64,000 nucleotides of DNA from Patiria pectinifera (taxonomy: Eukaryota; Echinodermata; Asteroidea; Valvatida; Asterinidae), in the NCBI GenBank assembly GCA_029964075.1, contig CM057142.1, forward strand, positions 26,166,392 through 26,230,391, in the 5' to 3' direction. Below are positions 14,122 to 55,143 of this stretch, piece after piece; position 1 is the first letter of the stretch; each line of letters starts with the position of its first letter. The notes under the pieces were generated by a model that was given only the letters and a program-made list of their open reading frames with translations, was not told the DNA's origin and made no database searches. A program made the position numbers and the translations under genes.

Positions 14122-14252
14122 CTTGAACAAAGATATTGACTAATTGGGGAACCGCCAACATAGGGCTGGATAGCTCAGTTGGTAAGAGCACCAGAACGGT
14201 TATCCGGAGGTCGCAGGTTCAAGCCCCGCTCCAGTCAATTTCTTTGTTCAAC
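14122..14252 (+). repeat. tRNA-like unit between 19-bp inverted repeats
   Basis: 14164-14236 folds as a tRNA-like sequence: acceptor GGCTGGA pairs fully with TCCAGTC, D-arm GCTC/GAGC, T-arm GCAGG/CCCGC with one mismatch, and A box (TAGCTCAGTTGG) and B box (GGTTCAAGC) present. Position 33 is C, not T, so it is probably a SINE-type relic. It is flanked by CTTGAACAAAGATATTGAC (14122-14140) and its inverse (14234-14252). Confidence 0.6.
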
Positions 14253-14952: not shown

Positions 14953-17900
14953 GTAAGCAACCATTCCGTTATCTCAACTTCTGTAAAATAACCAGTACCC
15001 ACACATTTTTTTTTTTTAGTATTTTAAATGATTTAGGATTTTACAGTACAGTCAATTGAACTCTGTGCAAAAGAGTGTTGCCATTCCTGTGTTTGAGACA
15101 TGTATGCTAATTTGTGCATAATTGTCACATGTACTTTTTATCTGAATATTCACTTGTCTTGGCATGGGCGGCTATGACATTGCAGTGTCTTTCATATTCT
15201 CCCTTTGACATCTTTGATGTCTGTTTCTTGTAGGAATAAAACCCTTACAGTTAGCAAAGCCTTGGAAGTTAGGGTTTCTAGTCATGTGTCCAAAAAATAA
15301 TACGTAGAGACTATGCATTGCAAGTCGCAAAACCAGTTTTTAAGTCAGTTTTTTTCTTTCTGTTTATGTTTAGTCACTCTAGTGCACTTGTGACAGCCAT
15401 ACCATTCACAATCACACCTGCCAACTATTAATTGTGTAAAAGATGGATGGAATGGCAACCAGTGAGCAGTGAATCAGTCATTTAATCCCTTGCGAGCTGG
15501 GCAGGTGTGCAAATTAAAGCAGCAATCTGAACGCCATTTGTTGTTTTTGCATAGAAATTTTAAAATAATGCAAGTCTCTATTTTAGAGCCAGGGCATAAA
15601 TCAAAAGGATTAGCAAGTTTGAATTCCTTTACAGTGCACCAGTTTTCAACCTTAACTCTAAACCCCTAGTCCCTTTTTGCTAGGAACCATCCTCAATCCT
15701 CTAGAATTTTGCACAAGTGATCAAATGAAGGATACCCACTGCCTCAGTCCTTCAAAATCCTCCGACAGCCCTGCCTCTCAAAATACATTCATCCTCTATC
15801 CTCCGAAATCCCCCTCTTCTTCAAACACCATTCATCCTCAATCCTCCAAAATCAACTGGTACTGAATGTGCATTCATCCTCAATCCTCCAAAATCCTCCA
15901 AAATCCTCCGAAACTGCCCAGAGGACTTGGAGGAGTGAGGAGGGTAAGGGTTTGATTAAAGGCGAAACCATTGTCAAACAGTAAACAAAAAGTGTATATT
16001 GGAAACCTTTGGAAACATTGTTACTCAAATGCCCAAAATTACGTTAAAACTGCTGCAAGTGGAAAATAAGTACATTTGGCAATGTTTCCACGATGCACTT
16101 TGGATAAAGTAGGTTAAGCATTTTCAACGGTAGCTTTCCACATCACGATTGCTCATGTTGGCTGCCAGGCTTGCATCTCTGTCGACGAGCAGATTTTTGT
16201 GATTTATTCTCACGTGTCACTTGTAACTCTTCTGTCTTCACAGATGCCGACTTTCCCGTCAACCAAGAGTCACCAGAGGATGTGCTAGCAGTTGTCGGGA
16301 CGTCGGCACAGTTCCGGTGCTCCTTTTCTGGCAACCCAAACCCAGACATGGAATGGTACTTCCGTCGGTCGAACGAGGGGAACAACGTGGTGCATCTGGC
16401 AAATGGGACGAGGTAAAAAGTTTTCTGTGCTAGCCACACGAATGGCCAGCAGATGTTGAAAAGTTTACCCCTAACTCCCTACGGCGTGTGAAAAAAAATC
16501 ATATTAAAATTGGAACATTCAGGACTATATGCAAACACAACTTGACACATTGTGAACATTTTTACAGGTCCATAGATAGACAGTATATTTGTACACATGC
16601 TTTCTGTTGTACTTTACTGAAGGTTATCCATGCAAATTTACAAGAACTTTCAAGGTGTAGTCAGCCCCGTCGCAAGCCCTGAGCATCTGGGGGACCATAG
16701 TACCAACTAGGGGGCCCACTACCATAAAAAAAACCAAAAATACATATGTATGGCTTTTGCCGTTTGGGGGGGGGGTGGCAATTGCTTGCCAAGGGGGCCC
16801 TGCCCCTCCAGGGGGCCCCAAGATTTTTTTCTCTGAAATACTGCAACATCTAGAATGAAACATTTAAGCCCCCCCCCAAATGTCTATTTGCTGAGTTCCC
16901 ATGAGTTGCTTGAAAAACTATCGTGCTATAGTCTTGGATTCAAGCGGGTGAAGCGACTGGTAATCGACGCTCGCGGTATGTAAGCCAAACAAGCACACCT
17001 GGTACCCTGCTACATGTTCCGTACTGTACAGGTCATTTTGTCTGTAAATAGGGAAGAAGTTGAAAAGACTGCAACAAAGCATTTTAACAAAAACCACAAG
17101 AATAAAATTTTCAAACCGAAATTTCAAACATTTGAACAGATCAACCCTGAGGAATGGCTCTACAGTAAAAACGTTATATGTATTCCAATTCTTTCTAGAT
17201 TCAAGACCAACAATTTTGCATCGGTGAGCAGTGACACCTTTTTTTATTGATTGGTCTATTGGTTTTAATCGTTGTTTACAATTTTGTCCTTTTTCCGTAA
17301 CTGTTCCAACAGCACCAGGATCTCACCAGATGGCACTCTGCACATCGATGACATCATGCTTACTGATGAAGGCACTTACATCTGCATTGGGAGGAATGAG
17401 GTCGGAGAGGCTGACGTTGAGGCCCAGCTTGTCGTAGCAAGTAAGAATCCCGTGATCATATTTGAGTTGGTCAACTTGGTCCCCTTATCACCTCTACCCG
17501 TAGCTCAGGTCTGCCTTGTTGTCCCAATGATAGCCCTAGCTCACTGTGTGGTTTTCCTCAGGAAGTTTCTCAAATCCTTCAGAATGCTTGATTCTGTGAC
17601 ACATACCAGAGATTGTAGGGTCCATGAAATTAATTTTTCTGAGGAACGCATTTTGTGCAACTTTCTACTCCTCTTAACCAGTTCGCGCCGGATGATGTGT
17701 ATACCTGCAAAAAGAGTATCCCTGCAAAGGTTTTGCGGTATTCGGAACGGATGATGGATAAACATGCAGGGAGCGAGGCCAGAAATATCTGTCAGCAACC
17801 CGCTCGCAGAGAGCGAGGCAAGAAATACGAGTGTGCTGCCAAAGGGTGATGGCTTCAACCTGCCTGGCATTAGTTCAAGTGAAAAGTAATCCTGCTCCTC

Positions 17901-20900
17901 GTTCCGTTCTGGTCAAAATAATCCCGGCGCGAACTGGTTAAATGAATGAAAACTATTTGACACTCCTTTGTGGTTAATCTTATTAACCAAGAAGAAGTGC
18001 ACTTCTTTAAACATTTAAAATGTTTCCCATGCTTTTCTGGACAACTTAGGGCGCTGTTGCTATGATGTCATTTCAGGAAAACACTGTTCAGTGCAGGTGT
18101 TCTCTGTCCAAATTGAAAACCCAAAAATTTGTTAGTTGAAAACATTCGTGAGAGAAGTTTGCTCATTGGCTTTACTGCCATGTACTGACAAAACAATGAA
18201 CCACCAAAGAAAAGAAAATATACAACAGCCAACTTTTGGTGCTGAAATAACTGTAAAATTGAGGTTTCTGCCTGAAATGATATTTGCCATAACTACCCAT
18301 ATGTACGTGTTCTACATAACCCCCTAGGACCGACACACAAAGGGATCCTTTCAGTCCTTGAGAGTTGGGTCTTTTTGTTCAAACAGTCCTCTGTAGTAGG
18401 TTTGTGTGCTTAGTCTATGGGGGAGTGTTATATTACAGGGACAAAGGGAAACACAAAGCATTGTCCTCAGGTGTATAGTAAAACAAGAGTGCATGTGCAG
18501 TTTTGTGTGCACACTCAGGTCTCATGAGTGGTCTTGAAGCACCATCTGTTGTTCGTGCGTGATATAAAATGTTTTGGTACACCTGGAAGAGCACTCAAGT
18601 ACAACACCAATGTTTCTGTTTATCATACTCTTCCCAACTCCTTCCCCAATGCAGAAGTGAAAGATCTTCCCAACCTTGGCACCCGCATGGTCCCCGATGG
18701 TGAACCTCTATCAGTCAACTGCACCTACCCCTACGGCGAGACGGGGGGCATGCCCACACCCCAGATCAGCTGGCTGGACCAGTCCAACGCCCCCATCAGT
18801 GTTAACCCAGATGACAGGGTCCACACCGTAGGGGGGACCTTACTAGTCTTCAACCGACTGGTGGAAGCTGACAATGGCAACTACACATGCAAGGCTTTCA
18901 ACTCCGCTGGAGAGAAGACTACTCAACTTGGTGTTGTTGTTGCAAGTGAGTATTAGTTTGGAAAAGGGGATACTAAATTCTTTCTGGCTATGTACATTTT
19001 GTTTGCCATCCCTTTTCGCAACCAATTCAGCCATTCATGTTGAAAGAGCATTTTTGCTGTTAAGCAACATCTACAAAGGAATACTGGTATATTGCATCAA
19101 AACAAGCTCGATCGGAAAAATCTCGGAAGCTGCGGGCCAACGAATTGGTGTTCATGCATGAGTCACGTGATTGTGCCATGTAATTTCTGGAAGGAGTAAT
19201 GTTTTGAGTTTCAAAAAAATAAGGTTTTTGATCCCAGTGACCCCTAGATGACCTTTGACCCCAGTTTGGTCATGTGACATGTTGGGCTGGGCTACTGATA
19301 CTTCTGACAAAGTTTGGTTGAAATCAGTCAAAATATGTAGGAGCTAAAGACAATGTCAACATTTGTTACTAACTAACTAGAGAGACATGATGATTGTTGA
19401 GCTGTTATCCCGCGACTAAAAATGGTTTCTCCGGTATAATCACATTGTGGGGCACTGCCTCTTCTTCTCTGCTCCTCCTTTTGTACTGCTACAATCTCCT
19501 TGCAGGGATTTTTGAAGTTGCAGGCACCCATTCTCCATTCACACTTCTCACACATGCTTTGCGATTCTTTTTTCCAGCATAATTCTTGCTCCGTTAAACA
19601 TCAGTGCAGTGTAGCTCAATTGAAATACATTCCTTTCCACAGCTGTCCCGGAATTCACCGTGCGGCCTCAGGACACGGCGGAGAAGGAGATGAGGGATGC
19701 TTGGCTGCACTGTCAGGCGGACGGGAACCCCAAACCACAGATACGATGGTTGAAGAAAGATAACAGCGAGCTGCAGGTAAGCAAGACGATGTAGACAAAC
19801 AGTCTTTAGCCACTGCCCTTCTGCACCCTCCAAAACACTTCAAGTTTGGCTGGAAGAGAATGCCATATGTTTGCTGCAAGGACATAACTGTAGGGTTGTG
19901 CAGCCTCACACACCATATAGTGCCAAGCAGTTTTCTCTGATAGGCAAAGGAGCATCTTACAAATCACTCCATTTGTTGTCTTTGCTGAAAACTACACACA
20001 GTAAGCATGGGTATAATGGGAACGAATTTGTTCAGTGTCTTTTCTTCATTAATTAACCCTAACCCATCTCAATCCCCCAAAATCCTCATTGCGGTTTTGG
20101 AGGATTTTGGAGGAATGAGGACGAATGGTGTTTGAAAAACATGAGGATTTTGGAGGATTGAGGATGAATGGTGTTTTACATGTAGCACATGAGGATTTTG
20201 GAGGATTAAGGATGAAGGGTGTTTGAAGAAGAGGAGGATTTTGAAGATTGAAGATGAATGCATTTTTTGAGGCAGGACTGTCTGATGATTTTGAAGGATT
20301 GAGGAGCTGGGTATCCTTCATTTGAACATAGGCGCAACATTTTGGAGGATTTTGGAGGATTGAGGATGGTTCCTAGCAAAAGGCCCTGGGGGGTTAGGGT
20401 TAGCCCTTCCCAAATACTCCAAAATCCTCTTTGCAAAATGCAGGATTGAACCTATGTGGCAAAAATGTGTGGCTGATATTGGAGGATGCACTGTTTCAAG
20501 TTCGTTGGCCGGACCTTGTGTTGTTTATGCTCAGACATGCATACATTTAGGCCTAGTAATCCTGAAATCCTAGTAACCCTTGAATCCTCTGCACTGCTCC
20601 AGGATGTCACTGGCTCTGCCTCACCAAATATTAACAGTGATTGCGGAGGATTTTGCAGGATTGAGGCAGTGGTCACCCCTCCAAGGACCACACTCAAGAA
20701 ATAACACAGGAATTTGCAGGATTGAGGCTGTATGCAATTTTTTACATGGAGGCAGTTGGAGGATTTTGCAGGATTGAGACAAAAAGTATGTTTAACAACA
20801 GTAATGACCATTGTTGATTTGCTAACGGAAAGGTTTTCTTTTCTATTTCAGGACAGTAGATTTGTTACGTTGGACAACGGAACGCTACACATCCGAAACC

Positions 20901-43400: not shown

Positions 43401-46400
43401 ATATCATAGCACCCTCGGCTTCACCCTTGGGTGTTGAAATCTCACATCCAATCAGTCAACCAATTATTGTTAAAGGGAATGTACAACATTTGCTTTTGCT
43501 GCAATTTTCAGAAATAAATGAATTCGGAGGATTAGTATGTTATAGCAAATATTGTTAAACTGACTTGCTTCACGTTTGGGCTTGTGTATGCTGGAAAAAA
43601 CAAGAAAACCAGTCATATTCTTGTAGTCTGGTTACCTGACCCCACTAAAGATGAAACGGAGCAATTTACAGACTTTGGGGAATTGTTAGATCAGAGAATC
43701 AGTCTAGCAGGCTTGTACCCCTTCACAGGTGTGTAATCAATTGCAAAGAAAATGCGGAATAACTATATATGAAAAATTAGGAGCAGTTTTTGAAAAAGCC
43801 AGTTTTTTCCCAACGCTCGTCGGCCGACCAGCGTTGGAAAAATACACTTTTACTTGAAAATGTCAGCACACCAGGAGCCACAAATTTAAAGGATGCTTTA
43901 GACTGTCATTCCCTAACAATTCAGTAAGGTATTTTGTGATAACTTGATCATTTCTTGTTTTTGATGTTTGCAAATGCTGTATCTTCCCTTTAAATGTATC
44001 ACACATAGGCCTAGTATCACCTAGTGTAAATTTCAAAAATTTTGCTTCTCAATATCGTGGCTTATACATGTACATGTTGAGCAAATGATGAGGGCTGAGA
44101 TAAGCATCCTCACATCCAACTATTTTTCCAACTCACCATTAACTTCTTTGACCTCAATGACCCCTGGGGAGAAGCACTGCGCCAGCCTGTCAGCTTTTTC
44201 CCCTGTCACAGGTTGGGTGAGAACGATTTCTGGTAGTAACCTGTAGGACGCAGTGGCTGTTGAATGGGAGAAAGGTGAATCAAGAATGGGTGTAAAATAA
44301 TATCACTAACACACTACATGATTATTAAACCCTGCTCGTCAAAACCTCTCTGATCCCTAATCCCCTAGGCCTTTTTGCTAGGCACCATCGTCAATCCTCC
44401 AAAATCCTCCAAAATTTTACAACAGCGCCTAAATTCTTCAAAATTTTCAGACAGTCCTGCCCCAAAATGCACTCATCCTCAATCCTCCAAAATCCTCCTC
44501 ATCCAAAAATGTTGCACTTATGTTCAAATGAAGGGTACCCAGCCCCTCAATCCTTCAAAATCGTCAGACAGTCCTGCCTCAAAATACCATTCAGCCTCAA
44601 TTCACCAAAATCCTTTTCTGAAAAATACCATTCAGCCTCAATCCTCCAAAATCCTTATCTAAAAAAACACCTTTCAGCCTCAATCCTCCAAAATCCTCCA
44701 AAACCGCAAGGAGGATTGTGGAGGATTGAGGAGGGTACTATCTCAGCTCCCAGGTGAATATACAGCTCAATGTGGCCATGTTACCAAAGGTACAAGTAAA
44801 AGTAAAGTATGTCACGAGCCAATGTGGCCCATCAGACCGGCGTTTAAAGTCGCATGAAACGACTGAAAATATTTTGTATTCCCCCTGGATGAGATGCCAG
44901 TCCATCGCAGGTGACTCCCCAGCTAATGCCCGTACCAATTTATACTCCTGGGTGGAGAGAGGCAAGTGGGGGTGAAGTGGCTTGCCCAAGGACACAACAT
45001 ATGGCCAGCAGCTGGATTCAAACCCCTGACCCTCATGTGAGTCACGAACCCTAACCACTAGGCTACACTCTCGCTTTTTAAAGGTCCAACCTGCTAAATC
45101 AATATTTGCAACTGCTAAATAAACACACAGCACCTCTGCCATCACAGGTACACATTTTATTCTCGGTTTTAGAAGCGACTTGTGACAAAATGCCTTGCCC
45201 AAGGACATGACACCCACTTCATAACCCCGCGGGATGGACTCCAACCCACATTGTGCAGAATGAACAAAAAGGGATAGTGAAGCACCAGACCACGAGGCCA
45301 AGCTCTCCCCATGTAAAGTAATGCTCCATGTTGGGCTCACATCGAACTTGTCTTATTTGACAATGTCGTACGGCAAAAAACCAAAAGTGTTATTACTCTT
45401 TTGGACAAATGTTCCGAATTTTCTTTGAAAGCAACCAACTTTTAAGTGCCAGTTTGATTTCTACCCAAAAGACTTTGAAGTCTTCCTGGTAGTCCACACA
45501 GATGACAGAGTCAACAAATTTTAAAAGAGTCAAAACGTTAGACTCAAAAATATTGAGCAAGTTGAGTATTTCGAACACTGGTTGGACAACTGAACGGCTT
45601 TAACTTGCCTTGCAAATTGATGGATTTGCGAGGTACTTCTTGAAAATTTCACGGTGTATTTGTGAGGCGTCCGAGCGACTGACTTACCCACAGGTGAGAA
45701 TTTGGCATGGTCCTTGCCGATGCCCTTGACGCAATGCATCTTGATGTCCATCTCCTGGCCGGGTCTGAGCTTGGCAATCAGGATGTCATCTTGGACTGGG
45801 CGTATGGCCCCTTCCCCATACTGAGAATAACATAAAGTAAGAATTGGTCATGTTTCATTAACAAATCTGCACTTTGTGTGAAGAAAAGGCATAAAACACA
45901 ACAAATTAACAGAAATGACTTGAATGGCGATGCACTTCCGACTTGAAACCAAATCAATCACAAGTCATGTATCAAGCAAGCCAGGGAATGAACAATGACT
46001 AACGGATTCCTTCAGCACAATTTCAACACTGGACCCAGCCCCTCACACATCACAGATAGGCACTGCATTACTCAGTGGTGCCCTAAGGTTTTTCAAGAAA
46101 AAAATTCACACGTGCTGAAATGGGTGAGACTTGAACCCACAACCTCCTGCTTACTAGTGCAGAGGTCCAACCACTGAGCCGGCCAGGACTGGTTGGTCAG
46201 TTCAAATATGATGTAGCAGCACCTACTTCTGCAATCATTCACTAATTTTTAGTACTTAACGAGATACAAGACTGATTTCAGTACTGTCACAGTTTACATC
46301 TTGTCACTTGACTGGATGAATTCTGATGACAGGTGCGGATCCGGGAGTTGACTCCTTACTCTGACATTATTGTAATGGGTCATTCCGTATCAAATCACCC

Positions 46401-49400
46401 CAAAAAATTAAAAGTTTAAGCCCCACCCCCTTCAAATTGGTTCAATAGTGTGTGGCAATTTAGGCAGAAAAAGCTGAAATTTTAAGTTTAAGCGCCATTC
46501 CGCCAAACGGTTTTCGCGCTTCTCCCCCCGCCACTGTTTGGCAATATCGGTAAAATGGGTGAGGCCGCCAATTTTCAAATTACCATATCTCCACAACTTG
46601 TGAGCCCATTTGTTAAATGTTGGTTACAAAATACAAAATCCAAATTGACCATTATTTTTTATGTCAGAGTTATTTGAAGTATGATGACCTTTTGACCTTT
46701 ATTTTGACCTTGAATTTGACAATGTTGATCACGAGACCCTAAGACGAACTTGGATGGAAATTATACCACACCATGGTTTTTACAAAATATCCAAAAATTG
46801 AGGGGATAGTTTTTGTTGGGTTTCTAGCTCACTTCAAAGTTGGCATATGTGTTGCAAAATGTGATATCCCTAGCAGTGTACTAGTGGATTTAAAGAGGTT
46901 GGGGAATGCTCGAAGACATTTCCGTCATTTTTCGGGTATATGTAGCCTAAGGTGTGATGAAATAAAAACGAATATTGTGTCTGTCATGAAAGGAGTTCAA
47001 AAGGTACTTTTGAGAGCTGTTTTTCAGGTCCTGTTTCGACCCGAACATGCAATTTGTGTAAAAGTCATCATTGGGGGCAGCAAACAAAACATAGTAAATT
47101 GTGATGTAATAAACAGGACTCGTTTATACTACGCTGCATCGGGAGTCCAGTTTATTACGTCATGATTTACTATGTTTTGTTTGCTGCCCCCAACGACGAC
47201 TTGTACACAAATTGCACGTTCGGGTCGAAACACCTTTTGTACTCATTTCATGACAGACACAGTAGTCGTTTTTATTTCATCACACCTTAGGCTACATATA
47301 CCCGAAAAATGATGGAAATGTCTTCGAGCATTCCACAACCTCTTTAAAGCAGGGAACTGTTTTTACCCTGAAATGTGCACATGTACAGAACCGCTCAAGT
47401 GGCGTCTGCAAGTGGATACTACATTCGTTCCGAATTTGAATTGCATAAATGTAACAGAATTATAATCAAGTCATTGCAACTTAATCACAAGTCATACATT
47501 CTCAAGTAACGTAGCAAGCTATTCAAATGAACACAGACAAACACATTTCTCTTGTCAGCATTCATCCCTTGTAACTTGTGCCTTAACTTGATTTGACTTA
47601 TGATTAACTCACTGACAATGCTGGAAAATAACAAGTACGTGTAACTTGTGATTTGCCTTTCAGAAAACTACGACAAATAGAAAATGACTAGACTGCAACT
47701 CTGCAGTGAAAATCACCAGAAAACCACATTTACCATTTCGGATTGGTTGCCAATAGGGATCCACTTCAGGTACTCTGTAGTCACTTTGAGCAATGAAACA
47801 AAAACAAGACAATCACTATATTATTCTCTCTTTTAATATTCTACTTAATAAGGTCCTTTAACCAGTTCGCGCCGGGATAATTTTGACACTGACCGGACCC
47901 AGGCGCGGGATTGTTTTTCATGAACCTCGATGCCAGACGGGTTCAGGCCGTCATCTGCGGGTAGCACACCCTGATATTTCCGGCCTCGCTCGCTCGCTGC
48001 GAGGGGGTTGCAGATAGATACTTCCGGCCTCGCTCGTTGTGTGTTCATCCTTCATCCGTTCTGAATACCGCAAAACCTTTGCGTGTATACAAGTCATCCA
48101 ACGTGAACTGGTTAAATGAAAAATTCCCTCTTAGCTCATGTCTTATATGTGTGGGCATGAAATTTGATTAAACGCTAAGTGCCATCCAATAAGAGCCGAA
48201 TTTAGAAATTGTGAAGCAATCCCCACAAGAAAAGACAAGGCTGTTGATCGTTTTATAGCCATCAGCTCTATCCGCTCCGTTCACAAGTACCCCCTCACCA
48301 GCAAAGAAAGTACAGTTGGGGGTGACCGACCGATGCCATCTTGCCCGACTGCAATTTTGCCGCGACGTGCAGCCGTACCATTGCGTGTACATACAAATCC
48401 CCTGGTGTACGTGCGTCACACACAAAGTACAGAAGGGTGCACGCCAACAAGCTAAATGACCCGCCCATGAGACGTCGTTGCTAGGTAAAAAGGGCGCCTG
48501 AGTGATTCGGATGTAGAGATGTATTTTCCATCAGCCCGAGCTCCCTTCGCGCATCAACTTCAATGCTGACAGCAGCACAGAAGAAAACTTGGTGCATTGT
48601 TAAAAGAGAAGGCGCTTCAAATTTGTTCAGCTCCCCACTGGCTACAGGAAAGAAAGGTTGGTGTGTCATCTGCCTACTCTCTGCATGAGCATTTATAGCA
48701 TAGGTAACAGCCCACCTACTACCTTTAGAGTGTTTGTAGAGTTCGTCAGGGTCTGTTGCATCCTTGTCAGCCCCAGGGTTCTTGGTGCATTTCACTTTGA
48801 GCTGAAACTCAATGGTATCTTCTGCTGTTCCCTCCTCATCACCTGACAAGAGGAATTGTACCAAAAGTAGACAGATGAGGTAGAAATCACTGAGGCAATA
48901 CGTAAATTGGTCCGACTATATATAATGAGTGTCAGTCCCAGCCAGAATTAAGATCTCCCTTCCACCAGTTAAGTCCCTCCCCCTGAAATACCCTCCTGAT
49001 AATCAAACAAACGTGGGTCTGTCTTGATGAGTATCAGTCCTAGCCTGTGAGTAAAGATCCCCCATCCACCAGTTAAGCCCATCCCCTGAAATACCCTCCT
49101 GTTGATACTCAAACATACGTGGTCTGCCTTGATGAGTATCAGTCCTAGCCTGTCAGTAAAGATCTTCCTCCCACCAGTTAAGCCCCTCCCCCGAAATACC
49201 CTCCTGTTGATACTTAAACATCAGTGGATCTAAATTGATGGGTATCAGCCCCAACCTGTGAGTTAAAATTCCCCTTCCACTAGCTAAGCCCCTCCCCTCC
49301 GATATACCCTTCTGTCAAACTTGAACATCTATGGGTCTGCCTTGACGGGTATCAGCCCCAGCCTATGAGCTAAGATCCCACCTCCAAAAAGCTAAGCCCC

Positions 49401-52400
49401 TCCCCTCTAACATACCTACCCTCCTGTCGATACTCAAACATTCGTTGGTCTGCCTTGATGGATATCAGCCCTAGCCTTTGAGCTAAGATCCAACCTCCCA
49501 ACAGCTAAGCCCCTCCCCTCCGATATACCCTCCAGTCAAACTCAAACACCTATGGGTCGAACTCAATGGGTGTCAACCCCAGCCTGTGTGGTACACGTAA
49601 GATCCCCCTCCCACCAGCTAAGCCCCTCCCCTCTAACATACGTACCCTCCTGTCGATACTCAAACATCCGTGGGTCTGCTTTGATGGGTATCAGCCCCAG
49701 CCTGTGTGCCAAGATCTCATCTTGAATGATGGACGTGTTGTTGTACATGAAAACCTTCTCAATGGCCATTGTCGGTACCTATTTTGGGCAAGAAAAAAGA
49801 AGCAGAGATTAAGTGAGATTCAGCATCTTTCAGACAGTTACAATAAACTTATGATCTCTCCTAGGATTTGAGAAGGAACAGATAGAGCATGAGGGTCAAA
49901 TTTGTTTTGCATTTAACGCTCACACTTAAATAGCTGCAGCTGTTGAACATTACATGTAGGTGAAAACCCAGGAAAAAAGTACTCCTTAAACGAAGGTTTT
50001 GACATAATTTTGATATTCCAGCCAAAAATCAGTTCACAATTGTTTTCTTTTCTAATAACAAGTTTATCATTTTATGTCAATCAACAAAATTGTAAACTAT
50101 TAAATTAGTCACATTCATTGTACAATTTAAATTTTCTTCTAAATGACGGCATTTAGAAGTTATGGTGCGTGTGTTCTTAGGCAAGGCACTTTGTCACTAT
50201 TGCTTCTCCCCACACAGGGGTAAATGGGTACCTGTGAGGGCAGAGATGGTTATTGAGGTCAATTCTAGCTGCCTTGCGCCGAAATGGCAGCATCAAGCTG
50301 TATACTACCCAGGAAGCTGAGATTGTATTTGGTATGTTTCATTGGCCCAATGATCAGGGGTAACAACAATGTAAAGCGCTTTGATCTTACTAACCTCTCT
50401 ATAAGAACCTGGTATTATTATTATTATTTTAAGCTGACAATCTTCCTAGGATGTTTTCACACCACTGCTGTCTTTAAAACCAGGTAATTAAGGTTATGAT
50501 TTAAGTCAGGTTCACTATGTTTCGGGATGATTATTAATTGCGTAATTGATATTTATCATTGATTCAAAATTTTGTGACATTTTAGGGAATCATTACAGCA
50601 CTTGATACCTCAGCCAGCAGGATTCTCCTAAACGCATTGGCTAATGCAGCATCGATGCCAACCATGTCGAACTCCATCTCTGTGTCGGTCAGACGCACAA
50701 TGTCAATGTGGAAATTCTGAACAACAAAATGGGAATCGAGGTTCAAGAAGGGCGTAATCTTCATTCCATTTTGTTAGAAACCTTGAATCACCAAATGGCA
50801 CAAAATTGAAATATACGTGTAAGTCGTGTATGCACACAATGTATGAAGCATTGTGTGTAAAAGCAGAGACTGTGAAGCAGATCTCTTAATTAAATGTTTC
50901 AGGATAAGGGGGGAAAACTTGGTGAGGGTTTTGATAAATTCAGAGTACAAGTAGCAAAATTTCAAAATCAGATTTAACAAAATCTAACCTTTCCATTATT
51001 TCTTCTGTCAAATTTCGTGGTGAAGTACAAAGAAATGTTCAAATAAATGATGACATTTCAGTCGTGTATTAAAATATAAGGTAATTATGGTGAAGGGGAA
51101 ATGTGCAATGCTGGGTTATTTGATCTTTATCAAAGGAAAAGTGGACTGCTTGAGTTGTAAAGTGTCAAGAAAATCCAAGTGTTTTTTCAGCACAAATGCT
51201 ACTTATTCTGGTCAGAACTTTGTACAAGTACTATGGCATATACGAAAATAAACATCGGTGAAGGGCAAAACCTAGGTTGATTTACTATGGCATATCTCAA
51301 TGAGATTTCAGGTTTTTTGAAATTGAACACAGGAACATCAGAGAAACTACATCCACTGGCAAGACTCTGAGGACTGGTTCTCCACTGAACCTGAACCCTA
51401 AACTCCCTAGCGTCTTTTACTAGGAACTGGACCAAGTCCATCAAAATCCATCAATCACTGTGCGTCCAATACAAAACTGTACATGACATAATGGAATCCA
51501 CCACTGACGCACTGGTTGACATTCATGGACTTGCTACACATGGCTTTTATCACAATAGCAGTACAGGAAGCTGGGCAAAATCAATCAGATACCCCTAGCA
51601 CTGCTTCAGGCCATCAGGCCCAAGTCCATCAAACTCCATCAATATTTAGTCACGCCAGGCCTTCTGGACCAAGTCCCCCAAAGTCCACCAAAATGGGGGG
51701 ATGGATTTTGATGCAGTTGGGGTGGTTAGCTAGGGTTAATCAAACAGAGTGATGTAGTTCACTGTCGAAGTAGCATTGCTTACAGATCCGTCTGGACTAA
51801 AATATGAACGTACCTCCACAAACTTTTCGTGGTTCCAGCTGTCATCAAAACCCACATAGTTACCAGGAAAATCTGAGCTGTGGGGCTATAAATTGGACAA
51901 ATAAGAACAAATGGTAAATTCAGATACACCAATAATGCCTATCATAATAAAAAAAAAGATGGAACAAATTTCCAACATGTCCAATATTCTTAAGATACCT
52001 CTATGACTATGTTAAACCTTGATCTTGACAGGCAGTGAATATTTGACTGTGAACCGGTCCTCAATTTCTTCTTTTTTTTTTGGTCGCTCTTGTACAGGCA
52101 GTGTAATAAACATGCGCATTGAATGTTTTGGCAATCAATATCTACGGGCCCGTTTCCTATAACTTATAAGGGAATAAAATCCACTTTTATTTTTTGACCT
52201 ACCAAACTAGCTGGCGACATTGAGAACATACAGGTATGTCATAGATAAAGGGCAGGGCTTTGAATTTTAGAGGGAAATTTTTGGGTAAAATGACGATGAC
52301 AACAACAAAGCGCAACACGAAAATAAAGATGGCGATACCCAGCAATGTACCGTGAGCGTGCAAGGCGCGCTGAAACGCACGGCACCAACCGTAAACTGCA

Positions 52401-55143
52401 TAGGAAAATCGTAATTTCTACCCCAAGAAACTGTTAAAAAAATATTTAAAAAGTGTCATTATATTAAAAAGAGACATACTTTAGGATGAAAATGTCATTT
52501 TTGAGTAATAAAAAACACTCTTGACTCTCATTTGATTGAAGCAAAACAGGGGCCCTACTTTACACGATCGCCAATGTTTTTGGGACTTACAAATTCTTAC
52601 CGTGACAAAACTTTGTCTGGTGCCTTACTAACAATTGTCGTTGTGACTTTGTATTCCGGAGATGGGAATCAGACCTAGTCCCAGGCCTACATGTTAAGCA
52701 ATTTCGGACTCTATAAAAACGCAGTGGCTATTGTTATGGCAGCCGTAACACATTTCCCATTTTCTATCGTTACGGTAGACTGCAACTTTTATAAAAACAT
52801 GAGAAGAAAATATAAAATTAGAAGGAAAAAAGTGAATTTGAACGTTATGAAATTCGGACTTTATTTCCCTTTAAAAAAAAATCCTCCAAAGCCTCAGGTT
52901 AGAAAAGGAAAAAAATTCGAGTGCAAAACTGAGATGCGAACCCGCAACCTCGCGGTGCAAAATCCTTCCCTCTATCAACTGAGCTGTCGCATTGCTAGCT
53001 AAAACGTGGGGAAACAAATAATTATATACCTGTGTGCATATCAAAAAAGTATCGTAGAGGGCACTAAGCAACGGCTGCCATAACGATTATACCCAGCAAG
53101 TTTTGAGACAAATGAATTCAAGGTCTGTGTTTGTAGCACTGCTACATGCTACAAGAAATAGTAAGTCGGGTGATACGTTGATGATTTATTCGAATAAGCA
53201 GAGCCACCGTTCGGTCAAAGAACAAGACCAGGGTGTATACTAAACACACTAACTGAAGTGGGTGGTTGTGGCAAGTAGCAAAAAGTGCTACACCATTGAC
53301 ATGTGCACAAATTAAATGCTACACGGTGCTACACGCGTAAATCAAAGGGCGAAAAGGAAGGGGCCGTGGCAAGTAGCAAAAATGTGCTACACCATTGACT
53401 TGTGCACAAATTAAATGCTACACAGTGCTACTCGTGTAATAAATGAAAAGGCGAAAAGTAAGGGGCCGTGGCAAGTAGCAAAAAAAGTGCTACACCATTG
53501 ACTTGTGCACAAATTAAATGCTACACGGTGCTACACGTGTAAATGAAAGTGCGAAAAGGAAGGGGCCGTGGCAAGTAGCAAAAAAGTGCTACACCATTGA
53601 CTTGTGCACAAATTAAATGCTACACAGTGCTACTCGTGTAATAAATGAAAAGGCGAAAAGTAAGGGGCCGTGGCAAGTAGCAAAAAAAGTGCTACACCAT
53701 TGACTTGTGCACAAATTAAATGCTACACGGTGCTACACGTGTAAATGAAAGTGCGAAAAGGAAGGGGCCGTGGCAAGTAGCAAAAAAAGTGCTACACCAT
53801 TGACTTGTGCACAAATTAAATGCTACACAGTGCTACTCGTGTAATAAATGAAAAGGCGAAAAGTAAGGGGCCGTGGCAAGTAGCAAAAAAGTGCTACACC
53901 ATTGACTTGTGCACAAATTAAATGCTACACAGTGCTACACGTGAAAATGAAAGTGCGAAAAGGAAGGGGCCGTGGCAAGTAGCAAAATGTGCTACACCAT
54001 TGACTTGTGCACAAATTAAATGCTACACAGTGCTACATGCGTAAATGAAAGTGCGTAAAGGAAGGGGCCGTGGCAAGTAGCAAAAAAAGTGCTACACCAT
54101 TGACTTGTGCACAAATTAAATGCTACACAGTGCTACACGTGTTATAAATGAAAGTGCGAAAAGGAAGGGGCCGTGGCAAGTAGCAAAAAAGTGCTACACC
54201 ATTGACTTGTGCACAAATTAAATGCTACACGGTGCTACACGTGTAAATGAAAGTGCGAAAAAGAAAGGGGCCGTGGCAAGTAGCAAAAAAGTGCTACACC
54301 ATTGACTTGTGCACAAATTAAATGCTACACGGTGCTACACGTGTAAATGAAAGGGCGAAAAGGAAGGGGCCGTGGCAAGTAGCAAAAAAGTGCTACACCA
54401 TTGACTTGTGCACAAATTAAATGCTACACGGTGCTACACGTGTAATAAATGAAAGTGCGAAAAAGAAAGGGGCCGTGGCAAGTAGCAAAAAAGTGCTACA
54501 CCATTGACTTGTGCACAAATGAAATGATTCACACACTGGTAAACGTAATACGCCTTTGTTTTCATGCCCAATGGCAGGTTACCAGTCTGTAGCATGTAGC
54601 ATTGCTACAGGATTTGTGGTGGGAGTTTCCATGTCTCAAAAGTTGCTCCATATGATAACGATAGCCACTTCGCTATAATTATAAAAATCCTCCAGAGCCA
54701 AAAAAAAAAAAAAATTCTGTAATCTGGCAATTAATTAAATTTATGTAGAATTTTAATTTACAACAACAAAGTGTCGGCTAAGACTAAACGACCATGACGA
54801 CATATGGTTAATAATTAGTGTAGGCCTACCTACCTACTGCTGCACATTAACTGCATGTATAAAAATGATGTAGGGCCAGGGGCCGGGCCTAGCTGCACAA
54901 GTCAATGCAAATTGCAATTTTGTCGTCTGCTACTGCTACTAAAAAGTGCTACAGTGCCAGTACTACATTATACATGTATATAGGCCTACATGTACATTTG
55001 TACGTTAATAGTGTACACGTTTTTTTCAATCCTCCAAAGTTTAAAGATGCATAATTCACAATAATATGGAAAGAGTTACCTACATTGTCTATTTCATGCT
55101 CTAGCATTCGCACACGTGTGCGAGTTTCTTCAATCGCAGCCAT
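40322..55143 (-). CDS. POLR1C: RNA polymerase I and III subunit RPAC1 (11 exons, complete)
   Basis: Exons in order of transcription: 55143-55084, 51885-51814, 50716-50609, 49778-49646, 48842-48723, 47783-47734, 45820-45688, 44256-44137, 43020-42953, 41124-41076 and 40446-40322 (stop TGA at 40324-40322). They sum to 1038 bp, 345 residues plus stop, against 346 in human; every junction is GT-AG with matching phase. RPAC1 is the alpha-like subunit that pairs with POLR1D in the assembly platform shared by nuclear RNA polymerases I and III. Conserved blocks: [40 protein letters not shown], VEEKVx-type [53 protein letters not shown] and VSEAIKILM. The start ATG at 55143 matches human MAA; an upstream in-frame ATG at 55218 would add an unlike extension. 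Introns hold many repeats. Confidence 0.97.
40530..40860 (+). mobile_element. Third copy of the 1079-type element
   Basis: GGTGCGGCGACGCAGC, GATGACTGCAAATGGTGCCC and ACATCATCTTACATTGAAA match 1079-1422. The right end runs into GGATTGAGGTTACATCCTAG, the header type of the CCTCC repeats. In POLR1C intron 10. Confidence 0.65.
41076..41124 (-). CDS. POLR1C: POLR1C exon 10
   Basis: 49 bp, phase 0 in, phase 1 out; acceptor TAAAG, donor GTAAGT. Encodes [16 protein letters not shown], matching human KLKKVVRLARVRDHYI. Confidence 0.95.
41125..42526. other. POLR1C intron 9, first part, with a long inverted repeat
   Basis: Sequence near 41690-41840 (CTACATTTTGATACCCCGTTTG, GCAGTTTGAAAAGTTGCAAA) is inverted at about 41995-42095 (TTTGCAACTTTTCAAACTGC, ACGGTATCAAAATGTAGC). 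With the CAGATTC... pair at 41655 and 42140 this makes a foldback element at about 41650-42150. Confidence 0.6.
42527..42946 (+). repeat. tRNA-derived SINE with ATT-repeat tail
   Basis: tRNA-like head with A box TGGTCCAATGGTT and B box GGTTCGAATCC, then a body with GAGCAAGGCACTTTACC and CAGCGCCTTGAGTACC, ending TGCACTATATAAGACTCCGG and (ATT)n at about 42926-42940. Its tail ends next to the POLR1C exon 9 donor, in antisense orientation. Confidence 0.85.
42953..43020 (-). CDS. POLR1C: POLR1C exon 9
   Basis: 68 bp, phase 1 in, phase 0 out; acceptor AACAG, donor GTAGGG. Encodes (G)[22 protein letters not shown], equivalent to human [20 protein letters not shown]. It sits between a foldback element about 50 bp from its acceptor and a SINE whose tail ends a few bases from its donor. 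Confidence 0.94.
43072..43209. mobile_element. Foldback MITE next to POLR1C exon 9
   Basis: Inverted arms of about 60 bp: TAGACCTAAGACGTAATGAT and inverse, with GCTTTGTT-xACATGTGC pairing inside. Lies 52 bp upstream of the exon 9 acceptor. Confidence 0.8.
43470..43993 (+). mobile_element. TTAA-bounded MITE, family A, uninterrupted copy
   Basis: TTAAAGGGAATGTACAACAT at the left, ATGCTGTATCTTCCCTTTAA at the right, TTAA at 43470-43473 and 43990-43993. A 28-bp near-palindrome sits at 43810-43837. Best reference for the insertion inside 625-1519. Confidence 0.85.
44137..44256 (-). CDS. POLR1C: POLR1C exon 8
   Basis: 120 bp, phase 1 at both ends; acceptor CAACAG, donor GTGAGT. Encodes (A)[20 protein letters not shown], then [19 protein letters not shown], matching human [17 protein letters not shown] and [13 protein letters not shown]. 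Confidence 0.97.
44365..44745 (+). repeat. CCTCCAAAATCCTCC-type dispersed repeat, copy 3
   Basis: Header CCTTTTTGCTAGGCACCATC, ATGAAGGGTACCCAGCCCCT, several CAATCCTCCAAAATCC units, ending GGAGGATTGAGGAGGGTA. The longest copy in the window; in POLR1C intron 7. Confidence 0.72.
44805..45315 (-). repeat. Two tRNA-derived SINEs in a row
   Basis: On the - strand the inner one (about 45078-44805) starts with a tRNA-like head GTGTAGCCTAGTGGTTAGGG with B box GGGTTTGAATCC, and has CCTTGGGCAAGCCACTTCAC and a TTTACTTTTACTT tail. The outer one (about 45315-45080) has GCCTCGTGGTCTGGTGC and GGTTGGAGTCC, and CCTTGGGCAAGGCA. A 200-codon open frame across both is accidental. Confidence 0.7.
45688..45820 (-). 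CDS. POLR1C: POLR1C exon 7
   Basis: 133 bp, phase 0 in, phase 1 out; acceptor CTCAG, donor GTAAGT. Encodes [20 protein letters not shown], then [20 protein letters not shown] and FSPV, the most conserved RPAC1 block. Confidence 0.97.
45821..46888. other. POLR1C intron 6, left part
   Basis: 46118-46190 is a tRNA-like sequence on the - strand (GGTTGTGGGTTCAAGTCTCA), related to the arms of the 23187 foldback. 46375-46760 is AT-rich with nothing recognised. Confidence 0.5.
46889..47349. mobile_element. Foldback element, about 200-bp arms
   Basis: TTTAAAGAGGTTGGGGAATG pairs with CATTCCACAACCTCTTTAAA at the other end; CGGGTATATGTAGCCTAAGG, GGGGGCAGCAAACAAAACAT and their inverses pair further in. 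In POLR1C intron 6. Confidence 0.82.
47734..47783 (-). CDS. POLR1C: POLR1C exon 6
   Basis: 50 bp, phase 1 in, phase 0 out. Encodes (V)[16 protein letters not shown], matching human VYTRHMTWIPLGNQADL. The acceptor is AAAG at 47787-47784; a downstream CAG would lose the conserved V-T-T and shift the frame. Confidence 0.92.
47858..48115 (+). mobile_element. TTAACCAGTTCGCGCCGG MITE, family B, copy 2
   Basis: TTAACCAGTTCGCGCCGG at the left, GTGAACTGGTTAA at the right. It shares the CCGGCCTCGCTCG / TACCGCAAAACCTTTGC words with copy 1 (inverse), though the middle differs. In POLR1C intron 5. Confidence 0.78.
48116..48722. other. POLR1C intron 5, right part
   Basis: 48270-48440 is a copy of the dispersed family also at 22378, 39935 and 58960. 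Nothing else seen. Confidence 0.45.
48723..48842 (-). CDS. POLR1C: POLR1C exon 5
   Basis: 120 bp, phase 1 at both ends. Encodes [20 protein letters not shown], then [19 protein letters not shown], matching human [20 protein letters not shown] and DSSDPNELYVNHK. Confidence 0.96.
48920..49645 (-). repeat. Tandem copies of POLR1C exon 4 end plus donor, in intron 4
   Basis: About seven degenerate units of roughly 105-115 bp. Each repeats the exon 4 segment for [18 protein letters not shown], its GGAGG|GTA donor and about 45 bp of intron (AAGCCCCTCCC). On the + strand the marker GATGGGTATCAGCCCCAGCC, exact in exon 4, recurs with changes near 48927, 49025, 49132, 49237, 49347, 49457 and 49566. The real exon is the rightmost unit. 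Units are not open in one frame and lack acceptors, so they are taken as non-coding. Confidence 0.82.
49646..49778 (-). CDS. POLR1C: POLR1C exon 4
   Basis: 133 bp, phase 0 in, phase 1 out; acceptor AAATAG, donor GTACGT. Encodes [20 protein letters not shown], then [20 protein letters not shown] and YRQE. The 3' part of this exon and its donor recur about seven times in the following intron (see 48920-49645). Confidence 0.97.
50150..50430 (+). repeat. 5'-truncated SINE with ATT tail
   Basis: Body words GGCAAGGCACTTTGTCAC and GTAAAGCGCTTTGATC, with a tail AGAACCTGGTATTATTATTATT, match the 3' part of the 42527 SINE type; no tRNA head is left. In POLR1C intron 3. Confidence 0.72.
50609..50716 (-). 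CDS. POLR1C: POLR1C exon 3
   Basis: 108 bp, phase 0 at both ends. Encodes [20 protein letters not shown], then [16 protein letters not shown], the alpha-type dimerisation core shared with bacterial RpoA and eukaryotic RPB3. Confidence 0.97.
50717..51419. other. POLR1C intron 2, left part
   Basis: AT-rich. About 51248-51286 is a fragment of the end of the 23187 foldback (CGGTGAAGGGCAAAACCTA). Confidence 0.45.
51420..51740 (+). repeat. CCATCAAAATCC-type dispersed repeat, copy 2
   Basis: Header CTTTTACTAGGAACTGGACC, then AAGTCCATCAAAATCCATCA units, ending GGATTTTGATGCAGTTGGGG. It shares the plan of 9170-9360 in the other orientation. Confidence 0.65.
51814..51885 (-). CDS. POLR1C: POLR1C exon 2
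   Basis: 72 bp, phase 0 at both ends, after acceptor TATAG and before donor GTACGT. Encodes [20 protein letters not shown] and KFVE, the conserved DFPGNY-x-GxDD block of RPAC1. Confidence 0.95.
51886..52704. other. POLR1C intron 1, near exon 2
   Basis: AT-rich, no exon or repeat recognised except GACAAAACTTTGTCTGGTGC, which recurs near 60210. Confidence 0.4.
52705..53100. repeat. Left flank of the satellite element, with tRNA-like segment
   Basis: GTTATGGCAGCCGT (52733) and ACGGCTGCCATAAC (53071) are inverted. Between them, 52915-53000 on the - strand is tRNA-like (GACAGCTCAGTTGATAGAGG, GGTTGCGGGTTCGCATC). Words of this flank recur after the array at 54652-54700. Confidence 0.55.
53260..54540 (+). 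repeat. 101-bp satellite array, about 13 units, in POLR1C intron 1
   Basis: Units of 98-103 bp start with GGGGCCGTGGCAAGTAGCAA and contain GTGCTACACCATTGAC, TTGTGCACAAATTAAATGC and TACACGTGTA. The second to sixth units alternate between two variants (TACTCGTGTAATAAATG and TACACGTGTAAATG), giving a 202-bp higher-order period. TGCTACATGCTAC words occur on both flanks. Confidence 0.93.
54541..55083. other. POLR1C intron 1, near exon 1
   Basis: Holds the right flank of the satellite element (CGATAGCCACTTCGC at about 54658) and then AT-rich sequence with TAGGCCTAC words. Confidence 0.45.
55084..55143 (-). CDS. POLR1C: POLR1C exon 1 (start)
   Basis: Encodes [20 protein letters not shown]; donor GTAGGT just inside 55084, phase 0. 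A second possible donor (GTAACT) 4 bases further on would break the frame with exon 2. The start region reads AAAATGGCTGCG, which resembles a YY1-type motif often placed at housekeeping starts. Confidence 0.9.

What the first reader, a model, noticed from the sequence alone, without database searches (positions are those of the whole stretch)
48920..49778. Host exon end and its 5' splice site amplified in tandem inside the next intron
The 3' half of POLR1C exon 4, the donor and about 45 bp of intron recur about seven times with a period near 110 bp. Each unit carries a decoy GGAGG|GT donor. Such an array could feed alternative 5' splice choice, or be a record of slippage or unequal crossover that included coding DNA. 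The rightmost copy is kept intact while the others have drifted, which fits selection on the exon only.
Basis: partly seen in the sequence, partly recalled or inferred. Interest (0 to 1): 0.72.

Follow-up and report, generated by a model that had tools for sequence, protein, structure and literature searches.

The report
Exon end repeated through an intron
In this animal genome the end of one POLR1C exon, with its splice donor, has been copied in tandem until the copies fill nearly all of the following intron; it looks like a decaying by-product of repeat growth and has human parallels, but one copied donor scores as well as the real one and deserves an RNA test.

Summary
On the minus strand POLR1C (RPAC1) exon 4 is 49778-49646 and intron 4 is 49645-48843. 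Units 0-3 show an A-B-A-B order, pointing to duplication of a two-unit block that included the true exon end. The copies look neutral: private changes show no third-codon-position excess, and the donor bases are not conserved beyond chance. The decoy donor at 49420 equals or beats the real one; the other five are weaker, clearly on a recalled matrix, slightly by U1 pairing. Every decoy isoform meets the same in-frame TGA (49565-49563), so none adds a protein variant. Best reading: an exon-end minisatellite, mostly inert, perhaps with minor unproductive splicing. ABCA7 intron 18 and IFI6 are published donor-bearing minisatellites; the coding-rich 103-117 nt unit is the difference.

The parts
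49646..49778 (-). POLR1C exon 4 (133 nt), frame VPTMAIEK...FEYRQE + G; real donor AGG|GTACGT at its end
   Evidence: spliced frame open, aligns to the RPAC1 chain 7a6h_C without gaps across the exon 3/4/5 joins
49605..49716 (-). unit 0: last 71 nt of exon 4 plus first 41 nt of intron 4 (true junction at 49646/49645)
49492..49604 (-). unit 1 (type B); weaker decoy donor AGG|GTATAT after 49529; holds the in-frame TGA met by all read-through isoforms (49565-49563)
49379..49491 (-). unit 2 (type A, 88% identical to unit 0); strong decoy donor AGG|GTAGGT after 49420
49272..49378 (-). unit 3 (type B); weaker decoy donor AGG|GTATAT after 49308
49166..49271 (-). unit 4 (type C); weaker decoy donor AGG|GTATTT after 49200
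49061..49165 (-). unit 5 (type C); weaker decoy donor AGG|GTATTT after 49095
48956..49060 (-). unit 6 (type C); weaker decoy donor AGG|GTATTT after 48992
48925..48955 (-). unit 7, truncated: only the first part of the exon-derived stretch is recognisable
   Evidence: local alignment to unit 5, score 32; its intron-derived part, 42-48%, is not recognisable
48843..48924 (-). non-repeated 3' end of intron 4 with the real acceptor (CTTGTCAG)
48723..48842 (-). POLR1C exon 5 (120 nt)

Best explanation
A tandem duplication took about the last 71 nt of POLR1C exon 4, its 5' splice site and about 40 nt of the following intron, and repeated exchange or slippage grew it into a minisatellite that now makes up about 90% of intron 4. 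At least one later step duplicated a two-unit block (about 226 bp) that included the true exon end. The spliceosome presumably keeps using the first, exon-proximal donor; everything behind it is intron, so the copies drift neutrally while the true exon stays constrained. Shown: array, units, A-B order, drift pattern, decoy scores, shared stop codon. Inferred: the duplication mechanism, use of the first donor, neutrality, and that any decoy use would be removed by nonsense-mediated decay.
For: Array and period. Exon 4 end against intron 4 far above shuffles; the other six exon ends examined score 14-20 there. One locus in the own genome by DNA; all 5 of 5 protein-level matches of exon 4 at E up to 1 lie in this exon or array (the tool scores only its best candidates). 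A-B-A-B order: units 0/2 88% identical at 226 nt spacing and units 1/3 81% at 221 nt; units 1 and 3 share two gaps; ML tree supports 5+6 at 94%, 4+5+6 at 82%, 1+3 at 63%. Changes private to one copy: 11, 4 and 11 over 24, 22 and 24 sites of codon positions 1, 2, 3; exon-private changes 2, both third position. Exon-derived and intron-derived parts of the copies are equally diverged: mean identity 0.783 and 0.785 over the 15 copy pairs. Donor bases AGGGTA are invariant in all seven units, but runs of invariant columns as long as the longest seen (7) arise in 5406 of 10000 column shuffles. All six read-through isoforms hit TGA at 49565-49563.
Against: Raw copy-versus-exon differences are highest at third positions (22/143, 12/135, 34/142), which could suggest constraint on copies; dropping the two columns where only the exon differs leaves 22/143, 12/135, 22/130. 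A low second-position count remains among the private changes (chi-square p 0.08). The exon's two private changes against a mean of 4.3 per copy is too few to prove constraint by itself. The tree leaves units 0 and 2 unresolved (38%, near-zero branch). Use of the first donor is not shown: no RNA and no related species were available.
Confidence: 0.8

Rival explanations
1. The array alters splicing at an appreciable rate. The donor at 49420 (unit 2) competes with the real one, giving an exon 4 longer by 226 nt with a premature stop, or the long array promotes skipping of exon 5 (120 nt, so in frame), so that the array sets the dosage of POLR1C.
For: Donor at 49420: U1 duplex energy -9.4 versus -5.5 kcal/mol for the real donor, 3.96 versus 3.37 bits on a recalled matrix; 3 of 436 intronic GTs score at least as well, itself counted. 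The other decoys are only 0.4 kcal/mol below the real donor by U1 pairing, and one real donor of this gene (exon 3) scores lower than they do on the matrix (-0.72). In-frame stop in every decoy isoform. ABCA7 precedent: a one-unit retention isoform with a stop, raised by cycloheximide, and skipping of the next exon that grows with array length (PMC5954066, passages).
Against: Five of six decoys are 3.4-3.6 bits below the real donor on the matrix. The real donor is nearest to the acceptor of exon 4 and gives a 133-nt exon. In ABCA7 the unit-retention isoform did not change with array length. Donor bases of the copies are not conserved beyond chance.
Confidence: 0.15
2. The G-rich intronic part of each unit (33 GGG runs in the 803-nt intron) is kept as a splicing enhancer or G-quadruplex array that strengthens the real donor, and the exon copies are passengers.
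For: 33 runs of GGG or longer on the sense strand of intron 4 (6 of CCC) and three G3 motifs with loops up to 12 (10 in the whole window, both strands).
Against: No motif with loops of 1-7 in intron 4 (5 in the window). The intron-derived part is not better conserved among copies than the exon-derived part (0.785 and 0.783). G richness simply follows from repeating one G-rich stretch.
Confidence: 0.05

Closest known systems
ABCA7 intron 18 VNTR (human)
   Same: Tandem array starting at the exon's own donor, so each unit can offer a decoy donor; use of one decoy gives a stop and a decay target (PMC5954066, passages).
   Different: 25-bp unit whose first two bases are the donor GT, 23.7 copies in the reference; here units are spaced 103-117 nt, with seven donors, and about 71 nt of each is coding exon. 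Length variation and RNA evidence exist there, not here.
IFI6 (6-16, G1P3) donor minisatellite (human)
   Same: A minisatellite gives several splice donors in one transcript; two downstream repeat units are used as donors, giving three mRNA species (PMC4526556, passage; the 1995 paper itself is not held, its title seen in reference lists only).
   Different: Short unit (12 bp, recalled) and used donors giving coding isoforms; here all six decoy isoforms stop early.
Intron change by tandem genomic duplication
   Same: Tandem duplication across an exon-intron boundary with inherited splice signals (potato RdRp, PMC4974935, abstract), or of coding sequence with a proto-splice site (Drosophila cases, PMC2891723, passages).
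   Different: Those cases create a new intron. Here no new intron is evident; an existing intron was lengthened by copies of its own left edge.

Membership tests
donor-bearing intronic minisatellite (ABCA7/IFI6 kind) | tandem array whose unit includes the host exon's own 5' splice site | tested here: met
   seven AGG|GTA junctions in register
donor-bearing intronic minisatellite (ABCA7/IFI6 kind) | decoy donors used in mRNA | not testable with these tools
   no RNA data; scores only
donor-bearing intronic minisatellite (ABCA7/IFI6 kind) | unit number varies between individuals | not testable with these tools
   one assembly only
intron gain by tandem duplication | a new intron with acceptor and donor made from the duplicated copies | tested here: inconclusive
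   the spliced frame needs only the one intron 4, which speaks against it; but acceptor-like AGs in the array reach 9-10 pyrimidines of 15, like the real acceptor (10), so a new intron is not excluded by that scan
dispersed repeat or transposon | copies elsewhere in the genome | tested here: not met
   single locus, within the tools' stated limits (common words skipped, best candidates only)

The most novel reading that the evidence does not exclude
The array acts as a splice-donor buffer: a stronger donor at 49420 competes with the true donor, so unit number and unit sequence tune how much productive mRNA is made of a subunit shared by RNA polymerases I and III.
Probability: 0.08. Interest if true: 0.6.

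Novelty: new variant of a known kind. Interest (0 to 1): 0.33.

Why it matters
It is a clear example of an intron that grew almost wholly out of its own exon border, with the functional copy and its drifting copies side by side, and it gives a natural test of how the spliceosome picks one donor among seven look-alikes.

Tried and rejected
Chance similarity: rejected. Coding repeat included in the protein: rejected, because the read-through hits TGA in unit 1, although the exon-derived stretch of units 2, 4, 5 and 6 taken alone, with gaps removed, has no stop; units 1 and 3 have one each. Conserved decoy donors: not beyond chance. G-quadruplex with loops of 1-7: none in intron 4. Base rate: the last 75 nt of 54 coding matches (the best 30 of 153 Ras-family matches and 24 of 24 proteasome matches) against their 3' flanks gave 0 of 54 at score 40 or more, against 102 for POLR1C exon 4; the two best, L058 (31) and L059 (27), exceed all 50 of their shuffles and were not looked into. 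These are ends of family matches, not proven exon ends; flanks began 60 nt downstream, and 50 single-base shuffles were used. Literature, listings only: 0 papers; 7 papers; 5; 4; 3; 15 of 43 listed; 3; no listed title concerns this array.

Full report
Observation. On the minus strand the window holds POLR1C (RPAC1). Seven exons (2 to 8), their edges picked by eye, give one open frame of 242 residues that matches the RPAC1 chain of PDB 7a6h at 1.1e-119, residues 27-267, without gaps (human by recall) and Pfam RNA_pol_A_bac and RNA_pol_L. Exon 1 and the exons after 8 were not sought. Exon 4 is 49778-49646, intron 4 49645-48843 (803 nt), exon 5 48842-48723.

The array. TRF finds 48949-49716 with period 105-113 and about 7 copies. 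Donor-like AGG|GTA junctions lie after 49646 (real), 49529, 49420, 49308, 49200, 49095 and 48992; spacing falls from 117 to 103, not quite steadily. Alignment shows units of about 71 nt of exon plus about 34-41 nt of intron. An eighth, truncated unit is recognisable to about 48925. The array thus takes about 721 of 803 nt of the intron. If the extra units are left out, the intron would be about 120 nt; that is an inference.

More than chance. The exon 4 end scores 102 against intron 4; 0 of 200 dinucleotide shuffles reach it (maximum 26). For the other five introns examined the exon end scores 14-22 against its own intron (7 to 200 of 200 shuffles reach it), and the other six exon ends score 14-20 against intron 4. 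In the same genome 0 of 54 sampled coding ends score 40 or more against their 3' flank; the best, L058, scores 31, above its 50 shuffles. A DNA search of the own genome returns this locus only, and all five of five protein-level matches to exon 4 at E up to 1 lie in this exon or array; both searches have stated limits.

History. Units 0 and 2 share the long intron start and are 88% identical (spacing 226); units 1 and 3 share two gaps; units 4-6 share a third form. A tree of the seven units supports 5+6 (94%) and 4+5+6 (82%), less so 1+3 (63%), and leaves the rest open. The simplest history is growth of a short array followed by duplication of an A-B pair that included the real exon end. Slippage and unequal exchange cannot be told apart here.

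Selection. Among the six copies, changes found in one unit only number 11, 4 and 11 over 24, 22 and 24 sites of codon positions 1, 2 and 3; the exon has two private changes, both at position 3. Raw copy-versus-exon differences lean to position 3 (22/143, 12/135, 34/142), but this lean vanishes without the two exon-private columns (22/143, 12/135, 22/130). A low position-2 count stays (p 0.08). Exon-derived and intron-derived parts of the copies are equally diverged (means 0.783 and 0.785 over 15 pairs). AGGGTA at the donor is invariant in all seven units, but 56 of 100 ungapped columns are invariant and 5406 of 10000 column shuffles reach the longest run, 7. Numbers are small; the fit with drifting copies and a constrained exon is good, not proof.

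Donors and reading frame. A U1 gene of this genome carries the usual 5' end (L009). Duplex energies: real donor -5.5, 49420 -9.4, the other five decoys -5.1 kcal/mol. The duplex measure credits G-U pairs, so a recalled human matrix was used as a second view: 3.37, 3.96, and -0.23 to -0.01 bits. So one decoy rivals the real donor on both measures; the other five fall clearly behind on the matrix and only slightly by pairing. Some real donors of this gene also score low on the matrix (exon 3: -0.72; exon 5: 0.84), so low scores do not exclude use. Using any decoy leads to the same TGA at 49565-49563, with the exon 5 to 8 joins after it, which predicts decay of the mRNA.

Known relatives. The human ABCA7 intron 18 array begins with the exon's donor GT, and one decoy unit is retained in some mRNA with a stop; longer arrays go with more skipping of the next exon (PMC5954066, passages). 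By analogy exon 5 skipping, which would stay in frame (120 nt), should be looked for here. IFI6 uses two repeat units as donors (PMC4526556, passage). Tandem duplication across an exon-intron boundary is described as a source of introns (PMC4974935, abstract; see also PMC2891723, passages). The present case is of the donor-minisatellite kind; what differs is the long unit with about 71 nt of coding sequence and the near-complete takeover of the intron. The species was not identified, and no eukaryote relatives could be searched.

Noticed in passing
46889-47348: A long fold-back element in intron 6 of POLR1C: nested inverted arms of 117 nt (95% complementary) and 90 nt (91%), like a non-autonomous palindromic element.
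   Followed up: partly
53268-54533: A 100-bp minisatellite (12.6 copies, 92-95% matches, with a 202-bp higher-order period) upstream of POLR1C exon 2.
   Followed up: no
15882-15913, 20100-20260, 44581-44697: Related short tandem arrays built on TGGAGGATT/AATCCTCCA words recur at three places in the window, suggesting a dispersed minisatellite.
   Followed up: no
46120-46190, 45000-45070, 52920-52990: Stretches that read like tRNA-derived SINEs (box-B-like GGTTCAA/GGTTCGC words) seen by eye; ARAGORN calls none of them, only a tRNA-Thr at 14164-14237.
   Followed up: no
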